Shown here one piece after another: positions 17,777-23,989 of a DNA stretch of 29,436 nucleotides (within the stretch, counting starts at the first letter, position 1; the number at the start of each line of letters is the position of its first letter). A model generated the notes under the pieces. It saw only the letters and a list, made by a program, of their open reading frames with translations, made no database searches and had not been told where the DNA came from. The DNA lies in IMG/VR virus record IMGVR_UViG_3300043595_000018, positions 1-29,436 of that record; one strand, given 5' to 3'. Made by a program: the position numbers and the translations under genes. The DNA is from a virus.

Positions 17777-18130
17777 ATGACCGAAAGTCTCCGCCAAAAG
17801 CAAAGCAGATTTGCGCTTGCCGTCGCCCTGCTGATCCAGGAGGCGGACAAGCGCGGCTATGCCGTGACCCTGGGCGATGCCTACCGCACGCCTGGCCAGG
17901 CCGTGGCGAACGCGCTGAGCGGCTCAGGGATATCGAACAGCCTTCACTGCGAGCGCTTGGCGATCGACCTGAACCTGTTCAAGGACGGGCGATTCCTGGC
18001 GGGCACGGAGGACCACCGGCCGCTGGGTGAGTGGTGGGAGTCTCTATCACCGGATCATCGGTGGGGCGGTAGATTCTCCCGCCCAGACGGAAATCACTAT
18101 AGTTTGTCGATCGACGGGAAAAGGGGCTAA
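17777..18130 (+). CDS. Endolysin, M15-type L,D/D,D-peptidase
   Basis: A 117-residue protein. I start it at ATG 17777, with GGAG eight bases upstream, rather than at an earlier in-frame ATG in the preceding gene. The zinc-site pattern of M15 peptidases is visible: H57 and D64 in SLHCERLAID (H-x6-D) and H107 preceded by D104 in PDGNHYSL (D-x-x-H). The conserved GDAYRTPGQA lies at residues 33-42. Such enzymes cut the peptide part of peptidoglycan, as does the T5 endolysin. No signal peptide is visible, so release would depend on a holin, fitting the membrane genes just upstream. It is the last gene on the plus strand. Confidence 0.85.
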   Translation: MTESLRQKQSRFALAVALLIQEADKRGYAVTLGDAYRTPGQAVANALSGSGISNSLHCERLAIDLNLFKDGRFLAGTEDHRPLGEWWESLSPDHRWGGRFSRPDGNHYSLSIDGKRG

Positions 18131-18157
18131 CCGCTAGCCTGCAGAGGGCGGCGCTTC

Positions 18158-18376
18158 TTAGCTCCTCGGCCAAAGCCCCTGCTGATGCTCTCGCTCCGCC
18201 CACAGCCGCCGCGCATGGATCGTGCGGTGATGCGCCTCGGCCAGGCGCTCGGCGGCATCGGCCTTGACGTCGCGCAGCACCTGCAGGAGCTCGTCGCGGG
18301 TGGCGGTGAGGTTGGTCACAATCTTGCCTGACGGGAGAATGTGACTCCATTCGAAGGCGGGGTCGGCGCGGGTCAT
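18158..18376 (-). CDS. Small unassigned protein between endolysin and attP
   Basis: A 72-residue protein on the minus strand, converging on the endolysin with 27 bp between stops. GGAGG lies four bases before its ATG. The sequence is helical and charged (ATRDELLQVLRDVKADAAER) with His and Trp near the end (HHRTIHARRLW). No known domain is recognised. It is the only minus-strand gene on the far side of the integrase attachment site, so after integration it would lie at the prophage edge opposite integrase. That is a common place for genes expressed from the lysogen, but expression is not shown by the sequence. Confidence 0.55.
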   Translation of the reverse strand: MTRADPAFEWSHILPSGKIVTNLTATRDELLQVLRDVKADAAERLAEAHHRTIHARRLWAEREHQQGLWPRS

Positions 18377-18388
18377 GACGCCTCCAAG

Positions 18389-18418
18389 TATTAGACAAGC
18401 CTGGTAGATATTAGACAG
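18389..18418 (+). repeat. Left pair of putative integrase arm-type sites
   Basis: Two direct copies of TATTAGACA occur at 18389-18397 and 18409-18417 (the second extends to TATTAGACAG), 20 bp start to start. They sit just left of the tRNA-like core. The same word recurs twice right of the core. Arm-site function is inferred from the arrangement. Confidence 0.6.
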
Positions 18419-18431
18419 GCACCCTAGAAAT

Positions 18432-18479
18432 TGGCGCCCCCGGCAGGAGTTGAACCTGCGACCTACCGCTTAGGAGGCG
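18432..18479 (-). other. attP: attP core: 3' half of a tRNA-Arg(CCT) gene
   Basis: Read on the minus strand, this stretch gives the 3' half of a tRNA: loop CTCCTAA (18476-18470) with anticodon CCT, 3' anticodon stem GCGGT, T-arm GCAGG-TTCAACT-CCTGC, acceptor strand CGGGGGC, discriminator G and encoded CCA (18434-18432). The 5' side of the anticodon stem is AGCGC, leaving one mismatch, and beyond it no D-arm or matching 5' acceptor GCCCCCG is found. A tRNA half that stops at the anticodon is what a phage attP carries when integration restores the host tRNA. The integrase gene lies about 120 bp away. The exact crossover bases cannot be read from one sequence. Confidence 0.8.
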
Positions 18480-18531
18480 CTGCCCCGTAACGCCTCAAGT
18501 TTCTGAAGTAGATGAGTAATTGGGGCCCCGG

Positions 18532-18541
18532 CTGTCTAATA
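18532..18541 (-). repeat. Right inverted arm-type site
   Basis: CTGTCTAATA is the exact reverse complement of TATTAGACAG seen left of the core. It begins the one AT-rich stretch (about 18536-18585) of an otherwise GC-rich window, which could also hold host-factor (IHF-type) bending sites, though no good match is evident. Confidence 0.58.
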
Positions 18542-18596
18542 TATTTTTCCGGCAATACTCTAATAACATCGGAAAATTAAGGCCTTCACCGCGAGC

Positions 18597-18606
18597 TATT
18601 AGACAG
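18597..18606 (+). repeat. Right direct arm-type site overlapping the integrase stop
   Basis: TATTAGACAG is identical to the copy at 18409-18418. It covers the integrase stop codon (18599-18601) and the last codon, so this word is constrained by coding and site function together, if it is a site. Confidence 0.5.
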
Positions 18607-19588
18607 CATCCGCCGGCACGATCCGCAGTGCCTTGGCGCGCTTGGGGAGCCTGCGGTAGACCCGCTTGGTCAGCTTCGGATCGTTGTGCCCGAGCCTCGC
18701 GGTAGCTTCCTCATCACTCTCCGCATCGGTTGCGGACTTGGCGCGCAGGTCGTGGAAGGTGAAGCGCTCAGCCAACCCGCGCTTCATTGCCTTGGCCATG
18801 AGCCGCTGCCACATCGCGCCGAACCCGTCCGCCGTGTAGCGCTTGCCGTCACGCCGGCAGATCACGAACTGCCGTACCCGCGGCGGGATCCGGAACGCGG
18901 CATCGATCGTCATGCGCAGCTCGTCGTTCCACTCGATTAGCAACAGCTTGCCGTCCTTGCTGGTCTCGATCTGGATACCATCGGCGAGGAGATGGCGGCG
19001 CTCGAGCGCTAGGATATCAGCCTTGCGGAAGCCGGCCACCAGCGCAAGGTCCATGGCCAGGCCGATCATCTGCGGGGCGAGATCGCGCACGACCAGGTAC
19101 TCGGCATCGGTGACGTAGCGCTCCCGTGCACCCGACCCCTTAAAGCGCAGACCAAAGCAGGGGTTCTCGCCATTCATCGCGCCGATGCGGCGGGCAAAGG
19201 TGAGCACGGCCGACAATGCTCGGACCTCGTGCCGTGCTTGCTCGATCTCACCGCGGGCTCGGTAGTAGTTCCAGACATCGCTCGGACGGATGGAGTCGGC
19301 CGGCATCGCGCCGAACGCCTTGCGCAGCATCCTGAACTCCTGCAGGCGGCTTTTCTGGGTGGCCTTCGCCTTCTTGGGCAGTTCCTCGGATTCGTACTTG
19401 GCGATCAGGTGATCTATGGTGCCAGTGGGGCTGCTGGCCTTCAGGAGCCTCGCCAGGGCGCTCAGGGCTTCTGGATACTCCTTTGCCAGCGGGTTCCACT
19501 TGTTGTTCCGGTCGACGTAATAGAAGGCCCCGTGCTTCTTGTACACACGCTCCGGCAGGTGGTTGTCTGTTTTTCTACGCCGCCCCAT
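18599..19588 (-). CDS. int: Tyrosine-type site-specific integrase
   Basis: A 329-residue recombinase. The catalytic set of the tyrosine recombinase family is present: R188 in LVAGFRKADIL, a lysine in the beta-hairpin (K211 or K214, SKDGK), H279 and R282 in FHDLRAKSAT, H301 in LGHNDPKLT and nucleophile Y311 in KRVYRR. The N-terminal 160 residues hold the arm-binding and core-binding helices. It would integrate and excise the phage at the tRNA-like attP beside its 3' end. ATG 19588 follows the DUF4224 stop by 9 bp with AGGA upstream, so the two are co-transcribed. All key residues are intact. Confidence 0.93.
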   Translation of the reverse strand: MGRRRKTDNHLPERVYKKHGAFYYVDRNNKWNPLAKEYPEALSALARLLKASSPTGTIDHLIAKYESEELPKKAKATQKSRLQEFRMLRKAFGAMPADSIRPSDVWNYYRARGEIEQARHEVRALSAVLTFARRIGAMNGENPCFGLRFKGSGARERYVTDAEYLVVRDLAPQMIGLAMDLALVAGFRKADILALERRHLLADGIQIETSKDGKLLLIEWNDELRMTIDAAFRIPPRVRQFVICRRDGKRYTADGFGAMWQRLMAKAMKRGLAERFTFHDLRAKSATDAESDEEATARLGHNDPKLTKRVYRRLPKRAKALRIVPADAV

Positions 19589-19597
19589 AGCGGGATC

Positions 19598-19810
19598 CTA
19601 TCTGGCGCGCCTGACGGCTTCCAGGTTGGGCTCGATCCGCGCGGCCTGGCCGACCGTCTCCGGCCGACCCTCGATTGAGGTGACCGGGACGATCGCCCGG
19701 CCATCGCACCGCACGAAGTGACGGATCCCGTTGCGCTGCAGCCAGCGAACCTGAGCGGCCTTCTGCGTGTAGCCGGTGAGCTGCTCGAGCTGGGCGGCGT
19801 CGAGGAACAT
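19598..19810 (-). CDS. DUF4224-type small protein, candidate excisionase / directionality factor
   Basis: A 70-residue protein. MFLDAAQLEQLTGYTQKAAQ followed by VRWLQRNGIRHFVRCDGRAI matches the DUF4224 pattern (ELTGY-x-x-x-x-AQ-x-x-WL-x-x-NGI), a small winged-helix-like family typically encoded next to phage integrases. By position and size a role as recombination directionality factor or DNA-binding partner of integrase is plausible but not demonstrated by sequence. Its ATG overlaps the stop of the 32-residue ORF upstream (TAATG), and integrase follows after 9 bp. Confidence 0.75.
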   Translation of the reverse strand: MFLDAAQLEQLTGYTQKAAQVRWLQRNGIRHFVRCDGRAIVPVTSIEGRPETVGQAARIEPNLEAVRRAR

Positions 19811-19917: not shown

Positions 19918-20091
19918 TCAATGCAGCGGTCCGCGTGCGCAGCGGTGAGGCCGATCTGATTGTCCGTCTGCACCAACGGCTGGCTCGGCAGAAAGCGAAT
20001 AGCCTGCCCACCACGTGCAGTCGTCGAGCTTGTACACGCGCACCGGCTGAGGATCCGGCGGCGAGGGCTCGAGGGCGAAGGGGGCGGTCAT
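19918..20091 (-). CDS. Small protein with VYKLDDCTWWAG motif, possibly frameshifted
   Basis: A 57-residue protein. I place the start at ATG 20091, which forms ATGA with the upstream gene and has GGAGG nine bases before it, rather than at ATG 20100. Residues 18-32 (RVYKLDDCTWWAGYS) resemble the start of a small phage protein family whose members continue with an acidic helix. Here the frame instead turns Ser/Ala/Arg-rich and stops at 19918. One frame over, the sequence reads QTDNQIGLTAAHADRCIELL and ends in an ATGA with the next ORF, a better fit to this operon. A frameshift or sequencing error is therefore possible. Confidence 0.5.
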   Translation of the reverse strand: MTAPFALEPSPPDPQPVRVYKLDDCTWWAGYSLSAEPAVGADGQSDRPHRCARGPLH

Positions 20092-20873
20092 GTTCCGCAT
20101 CCTCCCTCGCAGTCGTTCGTGAATGCATCAACCTGGTTGCGCTGGCTCTCCAGGTCGATCGAGTCGAGCGGCTTTCTTGAGTCGTGAACGAAAAGCTCTC
20201 GCGAACTGTTCACATAGCCACTGCGGATTGAGTTGTCCACGGCAACCGCCTTGGCAAATTCGGTCGGCTCCTGTTCCTTGAGCGCCAGCCACTCGCGGTC
20301 AGATCGGTAAGGGCAAAATATGCAGGCTGAACGCTGCGGCACCGGGAATCCATGATCCTTCAGCCACTCGATGCAGTGCCAGCGCGTCATCTTCATCTCA
20401 ATCAGCGGGTAGACGTTGCGCACGAATGGCAGTCGTGCCGGTTTCATGCGCATCACTTCGTCGTAGCTGAAGCCAATCAGGCATTCCAGCAGTATCTCCT
20501 TGGGGGCGCGCTGGCCTTTCGCCAAACCAATCATGCGGCGATGAGCGCGCTCAAGCGGAACTAGCTTGTGGTCCCTGGTGCACTGACGCGGCAGCATGCC
20601 TTGCCCGGCCGTGAAGAATGGAGGCCCGCCGCTGACGTTCTTCTCGCGGCGAACGCGCTTCATTATCTCCCCCTGCAAGTCACCTCCATCCAGTATCTGA
20701 ACTGGCGTTCTGCACTCGCGCTGCAGCTGAGCCACGTTGTCGAGCGTGCTCTGCGGGTCAGCCTTGTGGTTGACGAAGTGAGCCACATCGATTGGCGGGA
20801 TGAAGCCGATCTCGGCCATCCGGTACAGCGCCGTTGACTGGACGCCGCCGCCCAGGGACAGGGAGCGCTTCAC
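20088..20873 (-). CDS. PAPS-reductase-like ATP-pyrophosphatase domain protein
   Basis: A 261-residue protein. GTG 20873 overlaps the upstream stop (GTGA), has AGGAG eight bases upstream, and places the PP-loop right at the N-terminus, so I prefer it to the far-upstream ATG. The PP-loop is SLGGGVQSTAL (residues about 4-14). Later landmarks are CTRDHKLVPLERAHRR and CIFCPYRSDREW, both typical of phage proteins annotated as phosphoadenosine phosphosulfate reductase family. The fold activates a substrate by adenylation. The actual substrate in phages is mostly unknown; sulfur transfer, nucleotide or tRNA modification are candidates. The cysteine pair in CIFC could bind metal. It belongs to the early operon. 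Confidence 0.78.
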   Translation of the reverse strand: MKRSLSLGGGVQSTALYRMAEIGFIPPIDVAHFVNHKADPQSTLDNVAQLQRECRTPVQILDGGDLQGEIMKRVRREKNVSGGPPFFTAGQGMLPRQCTRDHKLVPLERAHRRMIGLAKGQRAPKEILLECLIGFSYDEVMRMKPARLPFVRNVYPLIEMKMTRWHCIEWLKDHGFPVPQRSACIFCPYRSDREWLALKEQEPTEFAKAVAVDNSIRSGYVNSSRELFVHDSRKPLDSIDLESQRNQVDAFTNDCEGGCGT

Positions 20874-21406
20874 TTCGCTTGCTCCTGCTCCACCGCCTCG
20901 GCGATCAGCGGGGCGAACTCGGGTGGCGGATTTATTTTGTGAGAGCAGCAATCGCAGCCGGCATTGCGTATACCGGGAACTGAATCTCCAGTGCCTCCGT
21001 CTGCATCTTCGTCCCAAACTAGGCATTGCTTGGCGCCATTCTCCAGGCACCACCGCAGCGCCGCCCTCAGCAACTTAGACTGTTGGTCAAGAACGTCACG
21101 CTGTCGCGCGGCGTTCGAAAGCAAAATAAGCGTGTCATCGCGTAATGCCTTCAGCCGCTGGTTCTCGGCTTCCAGTCTGTCACCGCGGCCTTTCAGCCAA
21201 GTTGGGCAACTTAGGTTGTGGTCGGAGTAGTTACCGCCGACACAGCCGCAGTTGCATTCAGCGACACTGCGCAGCCGCTGGTTCTCGGCGGTGAGCAGCG
21301 CGATGCGGGCGCGGAGTTCAACGCACTCTTTGGCGCATTCGACCAATTTGCGTGTCGCCACCATGCGCTCCTGCTCGTATGAGTCGTCGCTGTAGTAATC
21401 AGGCAT
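20870..21406 (-). CDS. Coiled-coil, cysteine-rich protein of unknown role
   Basis: A 178-residue protein. I choose ATG 21406, with AGGAG seven bases upstream and a small overlap with the preceding gene, over ATG 21439. Two coiled-coil segments carry the same motif AENQRL (in LTAENQRLRSVAE and RLEAENQRLKALRD), encoded by an 18-bp direct repeat exactly 120 bp apart. Between them lies a Cys-rich loop (ECNCGCVGGNYSDHNLSCP), and near the end another (NAGCDCCSHK), so zinc binding is plausible. It ends in a GTGA overlap with the PAPS-reductase-like gene. I recognise no family. Confidence 0.62.
   Translation of the reverse strand: MPDYYSDDSYEQERMVATRKLVECAKECVELRARIALLTAENQRLRSVAECNCGCVGGNYSDHNLSCPTWLKGRGDRLEAENQRLKALRDDTLILLSNAARQRDVLDQQSKLLRAALRWCLENGAKQCLVWDEDADGGTGDSVPGIRNAGCDCCSHKINPPPEFAPLIAEAVEQEQAK
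21152..21289 (+). repeat. Pair of 18-bp direct repeats 120 bp apart
   Basis: CAGCCGCTGGTTCTCGGC occurs at 21152-21169 and 21272-21289. The spacing is 40 codons, and on the coding (minus) strand both copies encode AENQRL, so the repeat is in frame within the coiled-coil gene and probably reflects an internal duplication. Confidence 0.75.
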
Positions 21407-23132
21407 TGCTGCTCTCCTGCCGAAGCGGGCACGTGGCACAACGAGTCTTTTGGTTTGGATAGTCAGCCGGCGGGCAGTCGGAGCAAAGCTTCAGCGCTTG
21501 CTTGTCATCTGCATCAAGGTCGCTCTCCGCCGGCGCGGGAGAGGCGGCGAGGGCGGCGCGGTCCGTGTTGACGACTGCGTTCGGGTCTGCCGGTACTTTG
21601 CAGAATCCGCCTGACCACTCACCGATAAGCTGCAGTCTCTCGTCGGCAGATCCAGGGCCGTAGACAATGTCGTCTATCTTCAAGAGGCGATCGCAGAGGC
21701 TTGTAATCGTCTCGCGCAGCTGCCGCTCGCGCTGCTGTGCTGCATCACGCTCGCCCGTAACCTTGGCCAAGCGGCCGAGCGCGATCCCAACATCCTCTCG
21801 GTTGCGCTTGATGCACGCAGCCGCTGACTCGCCGGGCTTGAGGTAACCTTTGATGCCCGAAAACTCATCGCGCGCAGCGGTCAATTGCTCCCTCAGCTCC
21901 TCCATCTCCGCCTTCCACACCACGCTGGCACGCTGCCAGGCGGCGTTGTCGCTGGCGAGGGCGTCATAGGCGGAAAGGATTAGATCTGATTCCTCAAAGA
22001 CGCACGGCCAGGGCACGCGGCAGTAGGTGCATGACACAAATCCATCTTTGTGTATGGTCGCGAGGTGGTGGTGAAGCCCGTTGGGCGGCCTGCTCTGGCG
22101 AATCTTCTCTACCATCGGATTGCGCTCCACCGCCACCGGCTTGCGCAGCTCGGCGAGCACCTCGATGCGCTTTTCGGTCTGCTCTCGCAGTGAAGCCTTG
22201 ACGTTGGCAATCTCGCCTCTCGCCCATTGCTGCTGCTCGGCAAGAGTGTTGCGCAGCCCAGCGAGTTCGCGTTCCGCAAGAACTGCGCGCGACGTGGCCA
22301 TGTCGATCGCTTCATGGTCGGGGCGAGCGCTGACCTCGGTGCGCAGCTCGGCCACCTCAGCCTGCGAATCACGCAGCGCACGTAGCAGGCGCGCGACCAG
22401 CTGCGCGGCGCCATAGAGCATGTCGTTCGACAACTGAGCCTCGATACGCTCGGCGTCCTCGACCAGACTGGGGTCGCAGGCTATCGAGCGGGCCAGCCAT
22501 TGCTGGCGCAGCTCGGCGATGGTGGCGTCTCGCTCAGCAAGCAACACCTCCAACCCCATCGCCTTCTCCTCAGCAACGAACGCGCGGCGCACATCGTGGG
22601 CAGGGTCGGCGCGCTGCTCGAGATCGTGCACGTAGCGGCGCAGGCGTGCCGGCAGGGCGAGGATCTCGGCTGCGAGGACGGGGCCGTACTTCTCCGCATC
22701 TTGCTCTGCCAGCGACTCGAGCAACTCCCTGCGTAGTTGCCCGGGCTGCCGGTCCAACACTTCGTCGTGCGCCCACGATGGAATCTGCATCAGGTCGTGC
22801 GCAAGCTTGAAGTTGACCAGCGCGAACTTCGCCGGGTCTAGATCAGATCCCTCCATCCGTTTTGCGCAGCGCACGACAAGAGCGGCCATGCGAATGAGCA
22901 CGCTGCCTGCTGTTCGGAAGATCATCGCCTTGTCGAGATGCGGATGTGCCGCTTGTGCGTCATCGCAGAACAGGGCGGCCGTGACCAGGGTCTCGAAGCC
23001 GAGGTGCTCCTGCGCCTTGCGGGTTGCGTCGCTGACGGCAGTCGCCTTGTCGAGCAGGCCATCGGGCAACGGCGCTTCGACGGCAGTGCGCAGCAGGCTG
23101 AGAATTGCGTCGTTGCTCAGATCTTTGTTCAT
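21399..23132 (-). CDS. Large coiled-coil protein with putative zinc-binding cysteine clusters
   Basis: A 577-residue protein. ATG 23132 makes an ATGA with the upstream stop and is preferred over ATG 23249. Residues 1-130 are a helical domain. About 200-325 and 390-470 are long charged coiled coils (VAELRTEVSARPDHEAIDM, ELREQLTAARDEF). Between them HHHLATIHKDGFVSC and TYCRVPWPC form a His/Cys-rich insert, and the C-terminus has C550, C553, C565 and C568 (two CxxC pairs). The mix suggests a scaffold or DNA-associated protein, but I cannot assign a function. It is the largest gene of the early operon. Confidence 0.6.
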   Translation of the reverse strand: MNKDLSNDAILSLLRTAVEAPLPDGLLDKATAVSDATRKAQEHLGFETLVTAALFCDDAQAAHPHLDKAMIFRTAGSVLIRMAALVVRCAKRMEGSDLDPAKFALVNFKLAHDLMQIPSWAHDEVLDRQPGQLRRELLESLAEQDAEKYGPVLAAEILALPARLRRYVHDLEQRADPAHDVRRAFVAEEKAMGLEVLLAERDATIAELRQQWLARSIACDPSLVEDAERIEAQLSNDMLYGAAQLVARLLRALRDSQAEVAELRTEVSARPDHEAIDMATSRAVLAERELAGLRNTLAEQQQWARGEIANVKASLREQTEKRIEVLAELRKPVAVERNPMVEKIRQSRPPNGLHHHLATIHKDGFVSCTYCRVPWPCVFEESDLILSAYDALASDNAAWQRASVVWKAEMEELREQLTAARDEFSGIKGYLKPGESAAACIKRNREDVGIALGRLAKVTGERDAAQQRERQLRETITSLCDRLLKIDDIVYGPGSADERLQLIGEWSGGFCKVPADPNAVVNTDRAALAASPAPAESDLDADDKQALKLCSDCPPADYPNQKTRCATCPLRQESSNA

Positions 23133-23989
23133 GAGCGCGCCTTGAGCTGCGCGCTCGCCCAGTCGCGCAGCGCCTGCAGCTGGTCGCCGGTGACGCAGAT
23201 GCGATCCTCGCCCTGGCTGATCGCGAAGCCATCCCCGGCGCGCTGACAATGAATCGCGCCGCTCGCCGGGATCACGAAGTCATCGCTGGTGGCGGTGGCG
23301 ATGACAGACTTCGCCGCCCGCTGCATCACCTTCGCTCGCTTGCCGCGTTTGGCTGGCTTGCCGGTGCCCTGGCGCAACTCCTTCTGACGCGCTAGTACGC
23401 ACTGCTTGCACGGCTGCACGAGCTTGCCCTTGCAGGTGTAGAACTCGCCCTCTGCCTTGGGGTCTTCGCACCTGTTGCACTTGATCTTGGCCACTGCGGG
23501 CTCCTGGGTGGTTATGGAAGGTGGCGATGCAGGCTGACTAGCGGACATGCGCAAGTTGGCAAACTGATCGGAGATGCTTGAGCGCTCTGGCTCGCAAGTC
23601 GCTGCTCGACTTTCGTCAACCGCGACTTCAGGTGCTGAAAGTTTCGCGTCGACGCGGACTGGCGGCGGTACCGGCCGGCGTATCGGCGTGGGCGCTGGTG
23701 GCTCCGGTCTCACCTCTGCCGGCGCCCTGCGCTGGCTGGCGATCGCCGCGGCCGCGCTCTCGATGGACTGACCGCGCATGCCCTTCTTGGCTGCTGCCGT
23801 GAGCGCGTAGTTGCCCTCGCTCGTCACCTCGACCAGGCCGGCCGCGGTGAGCTGGTCGATGCTGAGGTTGACCAGGTGCTCGTTGCTCGGGTGGCGACGG
23901 CGGATCGCGGCGGAGGTCGCGGCGTGGCCGAGCTCGGTGATGGCCTCGAGGACTTTGGCTTTGATGCTGCCGGGTGCGATGGCTTCCAT
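23129..23989 (-). CDS. Winged-helix protein with central zinc ribbon
   Basis: A 286-residue protein. Residues 1-70 read as a winged helix (IKAKVLEAITELGHAATSAA, then SIDQLTAAGLVEVTSEGNYA). Residues 90-165 are Pro/Ala/Ser-rich and likely a linker. Residues 171-197 carry C171, C174, C186, C194 and C197 (KCNRCEDPK, then CKQCVLARQKE), a zinc-ribbon pattern followed by a basic stretch (GKPAKRGKRAKV). The C-terminus is a small mixed domain. Two nucleic-acid-binding-type modules suggest a regulator or replication accessory protein; this is inference. It starts two bases after the upstream stop and ends in an ATGA overlap. Confidence 0.62.
   Translation of the reverse strand: MEAIAPGSIKAKVLEAITELGHAATSAAIRRRHPSNEHLVNLSIDQLTAAGLVEVTSEGNYALTAAAKKGMRGQSIESAAAAIASQRRAPAEVRPEPPAPTPIRRPVPPPVRVDAKLSAPEVAVDESRAATCEPERSSISDQFANLRMSASQPASPPSITTQEPAVAKIKCNRCEDPKAEGEFYTCKGKLVQPCKQCVLARQKELRQGTGKPAKRGKRAKVMQRAAKSVIATATSDDFVIPASGAIHCQRAGDGFAISQGEDRICVTGDQLQALRDWASAQLKARS

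What the first reader, a model, noticed from the sequence alone, without database searches (positions are those of the whole stretch)
18432..18479. Intact attP built on half a tRNA-Arg(CCT), broken at the anticodon
The 3' half of a tRNA (anticodon loop through CCA) is clear on the minus strand, but the 5' half is absent and the anticodon stem already mismatches. Integrase lies next to it and phage genes lie on both sides, so this is attP of a free or circularised genome, not attL or attR of an integrated prophage. The break near the anticodon predicts strand exchange within the anticodon loop of a host tRNA-Arg(CCT) gene. It also gives a direct route to the host: the sequence from GCCTCC to CCA should match that host's tRNA.
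Basis: partly seen in the sequence, partly recalled or inferred. Interest (0 to 1): 0.72.

Follow-up and report, generated by a model that had tools for sequence, protein, structure and literature searches.

The report
Intact phage attP on half tRNA-Arg
This is the docking site by which a temperate phage inserts into a bacterial arginine-tRNA gene: it carries the back half of that gene so that the gene is rebuilt on insertion, which is a well-known trick, here pinned down to a family of likely hosts and shown to be a compact unit that has flipped direction several times in related phages.

Summary
Confirmed. Window 18432-18479 (minus strand) is a 48-nt block identical to the 3' part of a full tRNA-Arg(CCT) gene: 3 nt of the anticodon stem, the anticodon loop, T arm, acceptor strand and CCA. 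Exact matches to the 45-nt half lie in five genomes of one gammaproteobacterial family and in none of a 369-genome sample of the class. The 5' half is absent. Joining a host 5' half to the phage 3' half restores a tRNA-Arg(CCT); the reciprocal join does not. The core sits between a tyrosine integrase (18599-19588) with its excisionase and late genes, flanked by four copies of TATTAGACAG laid out like lambda-type arm sites: direct at about -129, inverted at about -66, and a tandem pair beyond CCA. The same layout recurs in most related attP sites tested, at different tRNAs, all breaking at or beside the anticodon loop. A Solimonas prophage with 40% identical integrase shows both ends: full tRNA-Asn and a 45-bp displaced half. 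A known kind. Less expected: the attP cassette has flipped relative to int at least six times among 25 related integrases.

The parts
18432..18479 (-). attP common core: 48 nt identical to the 3' part of host tRNA-Arg(CCT)
   Evidence: identity block of 3 + 45 nt against the full tRNA of G433; exact 45-nt matches in five genomes
18470..18476 (-). anticodon loop CTCCTAA (anticodon CCT at 18474-18472): likely 7-bp overlap region for strand exchange
   Evidence: sequence; the Solimonas direct repeat starts at the first base of this loop; in L002 phage/host identity also starts there
18465..18469 (-). core-type half site (3' strand of anticodon stem, GCGGT)
   Evidence: sequence; inference from the anticodon-stem palindrome (PMC8371274)
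18477..18481 (-). opposing core-type half site AGCGC (host: ACCGC), 4 of 5 pairs kept
   Evidence: sequence; role inferred
18443..18459 (-). T arm GCAGG-TTCAACT-CCTGC
   Evidence: sequence, Rfam tRNA alignment
18432..18442 (-). acceptor 3' strand, discriminator and CCA (CGGGGGC-G-CCA)
   Evidence: sequence; pairs with host 5' strand GCCCCCG
18409..18418 (-). P'1 arm-type site (CTGTCTAATA on the tRNA strand)
   Evidence: repeat finder and pattern search, 4 hits in the window against 0.22 expected
18389..18398 (-). P'2 arm-type site, 20 bp from P'1, one mismatch
18532..18541 (+). P2 arm-type site, inverted, about 66 nt upstream of the loop
   Evidence: same position in L161, L094, L085, L096, L111, L118
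18597..18606 (-). P1 arm-type site, direct, about 129 nt upstream of the loop, overlapping the int stop codon
18599..19588 (-). tyrosine integrase, 329 aa
   Evidence: PF00589 and phrog_1; conserved K211, H279, R282, H301, Y311 and R188 in the Arg-I position
19598..19810 (-). excisionase-like gene upstream of int
   Evidence: phrog_8896/1266 excisionase, E about 1e-10

Best explanation
The feature is the intact attP of a temperate, epsilon15/phiV10-like podovirus. Its tyrosine integrase binds arm sites P1, P2, P'1 and P'2 and the anticodon-stem palindrome, and exchanges strands at the 7-bp anticodon loop of a host tRNA-Arg(CCT) gene. Integration joins the host 5' half to the phage 3' half and so restores the tRNA at attL (next to P' and the late genes), and leaves the host's own 3' half displaced at attR beside int. 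Shown: the half gene, its host counterpart, the arm repeats, the integrase/excisionase pair, restoration in silico, and the same breakpoint in an integrated relative. Inferred: the exact cleavage positions, arm-site binding, and that the DNA was free when sampled.
For: 48-nt identity ending 3 nt outside the loop and exactly at CCA. Full genes in five genomes of one family, 0 exact in a class-wide sample. attL join restores tRNA-Arg(CCT), attR join does not. Four arm repeats where 0.22 are expected in the whole window, all within 218 bp around the core. Across 19 related attP sites, P/P' repeat copies number 31 against a shuffle mean of 3.2 (maximum 11), clustering at about -129 direct and -66 inverted, or about -105 direct and -51 inverted. 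Solimonas fluminis carries both ends of a 40-kb prophage with a 45-bp repeat from the loop to CCA. L002 and L161, with integrases about 50% identical, carry the same tRNA-Arg(CCT) half.
Against: No integrated copy of this phage was found, so its own attL and attR are unseen. The record is a 29.4-kb fragment without end repeats, so a free circular form is not shown. No IHF-like site (up to 1 mismatch) was found in the window's att region, although most relatives read here have one beyond the CCA.
Confidence: 0.93

Rival explanations
1. The attP lies between two phage copies in tandem (double lysogen) or in a replicating concatemer, not in a free circle.
For: A tandem lysogen also has a complete attP between phage genes; the contig shows neither end.
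Against: No host sequence was recognised in the window; the phage is partial but single-copy here.
Confidence: 0.06
2. A prophage end (attL or attR) with a displaced tRNA half.
For: Displaced halves look the same, as in Solimonas and G499.
Against: Phage genes and arm sites lie on both sides of the core; in Solimonas the displaced half is followed by sequence outside the prophage.
Confidence: 0.01
3. A decayed phage-encoded tRNA gene kept for translation.
For: Many phages carry tRNA genes, including tRNA-Arg.
Against: 48 nt without a single change from the host gene, none of the 5' half, the same breakpoint in L002, L161 and many relatives, and arm sites around it.
Confidence: 0.01
4. A tRNA-dependent lysogeny system in which integration destroys the host tRNA and a phage tRNA replaces it.
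For: Known from mycobacteriophages, where attB also lies in tRNA genes (PMC10865867).
Against: Those have 8-10 bp cores and a phage tRNA gene; here the core is 48 bp, restores the tRNA, and no phage tRNA is present in the part held.
Confidence: 0.01

Closest known systems
Anticodon-loop tDNA attachment sites of tyrosine integrases (Williams 2002; Islander, PMC4383910)
   Same: 3' tRNA fragment carried by the element, crossover at the anticodon loop, tRNA restored on integration; Islander lists 2083 anticodon-centred islands among 3919
   Different: nothing essential; host family and integrase clade are additional
Actinophage RP3 (X80661) and VWB at tRNA-Arg(AGG) of Streptomyces
   Same: attP core annotated over the same half of a tRNA-Arg; 83% identical over about 52 nt (target named in PMC8724576)
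   Different: different host phylum; relationship of the integrases not tested
KplE1 prophage at argW (E. coli; anticodon CCU from my own knowledge)
   Same: same tRNA type, tyrosine integrase plus recombination directionality factor, arm-type and core-type sites
   Different: core is only 16 nt at the tRNA 3' end, so a different sublocation (PMC2951348)
Epsilon15/phiV10-like podoviruses
   Same: major capsid protein GP7 (PF20911, E 2e-114); 49% identical to phiV10 and 50% to Pseudomonas phage Shamal
   Different: best integrase identity among the listed deposited phage records is 37%; the window lacks the terminase and portal end

Membership tests
tRNA 3'-half attP of anticodon-loop type | attP shares 30-45 bp or more with the 3' half of a host tRNA, starting at the anticodon loop | tested here: met
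   48 nt from 3 nt outside the loop to CCA
tRNA 3'-half attP of anticodon-loop type | recombination restores the tRNA at one junction | tested here: met
   in silico attL gives tRNA-Arg(CCT), attR none
tRNA 3'-half attP of anticodon-loop type | adjacent tyrosine integrase with catalytic residues | tested here: met
tRNA 3'-half attP of anticodon-loop type | strand cleavage bordering the anticodon loop | not testable with these tools
   supported by the repeat boundaries in Solimonas and L002
lambda-type attP | arm-type sites on both sides of the core | tested here: met
   repeats P1, P2, P'1, P'2; binding not tested
lambda-type attP | IHF site in the arms | tested here: not met
   no WATCAANNNNTTR match with up to 1 mismatch in 18130-18700; relatives have one. 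So it works like, but is not claimed as, a full lambda attP
[quoted passage not shown]
   48-bp core, no tRNA gene in the 29.4 kb held
epsilon15/phiV10-like podovirus | GP7 major capsid and matching virion protein families | tested here: met
   capsid hit and virion families; terminase/portal end not in the window

The most novel reading that the evidence does not exclude
In this integrase clade the whole attP (P1-P2-core-P'1-P'2) is a rigid cassette that has been inverted in place relative to int at least six times, which switches which prophage end carries int and turns the prophage's direction relative to the host tRNA, possibly under selection for direction of replication or for int regulation.
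Probability: 0.55. Interest if true: 0.45.

Novelty: new member of a known kind. Interest (0 to 1): 0.3.

Why it matters
It gives an orphan metagenomic phage a likely host family and a predicted integration site, with exact junction sequences to look for. The related loci show that one integrase clade uses at least ten different tRNAs while keeping breakpoint and, in most cases, arm geometry fixed, and that the attP cassette flips relative to int, which bears on how prophage direction and integrase regulation evolve.

Tried and rejected
Exact 45-nt search of viral contigs: no match outside the window's own record; a degenerate version found L161, L162 and L002's contig. blastn of the att/int region against deposited phages: none. 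A fuzzy regex search for att sites timed out and was replaced by blastn. Displaced 3' halves for the G555 (Pro, Val) and G411 prophages were not found on the held contigs, and in G568 only a weak partial match (27 nt, 96%). The odd G492/G500 arrangement (int beside the 5' end of an intact tRNA-Arg(CCT)) was considered as an inversion of the tRNA between its acceptor strands and rejected, because the 3' flank of G492 matches the unintegrated G475; no displaced 5' fragment was found. The Rfam 'Plastid-ycf2' hit at 18434-18478 is below its gathering score and is the tRNA half read on the other strand. The host family could not be named: genome handles are anonymous. Genomes up to 9.4 Mb suggest Steroidobacteraceae, which is a guess from memory.

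Full report
What is there. The window is a 29,436-base virus record without end repeats. ARAGORN finds no tRNA. On the minus strand 18479-18432 carries the anticodon loop CTCCTAA, the 3' strand of the anticodon stem, the T arm, the acceptor 3' strand and CCA of a tRNA-Arg(CCT). Nothing upstream resembles the 5' half.

Host counterpart. A scan of 369 genomes of the class of Solimonas fluminis gave five matches with 1-3 mismatches and none exact. In the family of the best one, 14 of 150 genomes matched with up to 2 mismatches and five were exact: G391, G433, G475, G492, G500. All five lie in full genes with 5' half GCCCCCGTAGCTCAGTGGATAGAGCGACCGC. Joining the G433 5' half to the phage 3' half gives tRNA-Arg(CCT) by ARAGORN; phage 5' side plus host 3' half gives none.

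Surroundings. An excisionase-like gene (19598-19810) and a tyrosine integrase (18599-19588) lie on one side; a small ORF, a peptidase-type endolysin and tail/virion genes on the other. The capsid is of the GP7 type of phiV10 and epsilon15. Phage genes on both sides and no recognised host sequence mean the core is not a prophage end.

Arm sites. TATTAGACAG occurs four times (one with a mismatch), all within 18389-18606; 0.22 would be expected in the whole window. On the tRNA strand they are P1 (direct, about -129 from the loop, overlapping the int stop), P2 (inverted, about -66), and the tandem P'1/P'2 beyond CCA. For 19 attP sites (the window's and 18 relatives') I counted exact 9-mers shared between the two flanks: 31 clusters against a shuffle mean of 3.2 and maximum 11, with most falling at -126 to -132 direct and -63 to -70 inverted, or at -102 to -115 direct and -49 to -53 inverted. 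Three of the 19 showed none. The repeat sequence changes between phages but the layout mostly stays.

Relatives. L002 (integrase 53% identical) and L161 (48%) carry the same tRNA-Arg(CCT) half broken at or a few nt outside the loop. Other relatives carry halves of Arg(ACG), Arg(TCG), Asn(GTT), His(GTG), Lys(TTT), Lys(CTT), Asp(GTC), Thr(CGT) and Pro(GGG), again starting at or near the loop; L053 and L054 sit next to complete tRNA-Pro and tRNA-Val genes. Anticodons of the halves were read by a pattern search and are less certain for single cases. The Solimonas fluminis prophage shows both ends: full tRNA-Asn(GTT) at 189.8 kb and its displaced 3' half at 149.4 kb, sharing exactly 45 bp from the first loop base to CCA. 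This is the direct support for the breakpoint.

Orientation. In the window, L161 and Solimonas the tRNA half runs in the same direction as int; in L002, L013 and most others it runs opposite. On a tree of 25 integrases the direction needs at least six changes. The clearest pair is L116 and L123: int is collinear (75% DNA identity), a 113-115-bp attP segment is 90% identical but inverted, and genes beyond are collinear again. Since arm geometry is kept relative to the core, attP behaves as a cassette that is flipped as a unit. That prophages differ in int-tRNA orientation, and that this matters for int regulation, is known (PMC2951348); I found no paper describing repeated in-place inversion within one integrase clade, but this rests on two searches of an open-access library.

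How it works. Integrase bound at the arm sites and at the anticodon-stem palindrome exchanges strands across the 7-bp loop. The phage 3' half completes the host tRNA at attL; the host's own 3' half ends up at attR, next to int in this phage. This follows the general scheme for tyrosine integrases at tRNA genes (PMC4383910, PMC8371274, PMC10865867). Cleavage positions and protein binding are inferred. No IHF-like site was found in the window's att region, while most relatives read here have one just beyond CCA.

Verdict. Observation confirmed, interpretation supported, known kind. The host is narrowed to one gammaproteobacterial family, unnamed here, with the caveat that tRNA identity alone does not prove host range.

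Noticed in passing
L116:3797-3909 against L123:4120-4006: attP segment inverted in place between two close relatives with collinear int and collinear downstream genes; at least six such orientation changes on the integrase tree.
   Followed up: partly
L049:10214-10380 (G492) and L050:9572-9730 (G500): A decayed integrase with tandem AATAGTAGACAG and an IHF-like site abuts the 5' end of an intact tRNA-Arg(CCT), in place of the 5' flank seen in G475; possibly a 5'-fragment type integration (Islander lists 159 such). The short upstream flank is shared with G391.
   Followed up: partly
L051:4910-7754 (G499): A complete tRNA-Arg(CCT) and a displaced 3' half 2.7 kb apart, with what look like a transporter and an amidase gene between them and no related integrase detected: perhaps a small island remnant at the same site.
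   Followed up: no
integrases of L002, L053 and L054: The first catalytic arginine position reads S (L002, GMSQ) or D (L053/L054, GMDR) in otherwise intact integrases; the window's has R188. From memory, IntDOT also lacks Arg I.
   Followed up: no
L162:5898-7311: A different, larger tyrosine-integrase-like protein (442 aa) beside the same tRNA-Arg(CCT) sequence in another phage contig: apparently convergent use of the site.
   Followed up: no
window 20088-23989: PAPS-reductase-like gene (phrog_424) next to a 616-aa ORF (21399-23249) with no match in PHROGs, Pfam or NCBIfam.
   Followed up: no
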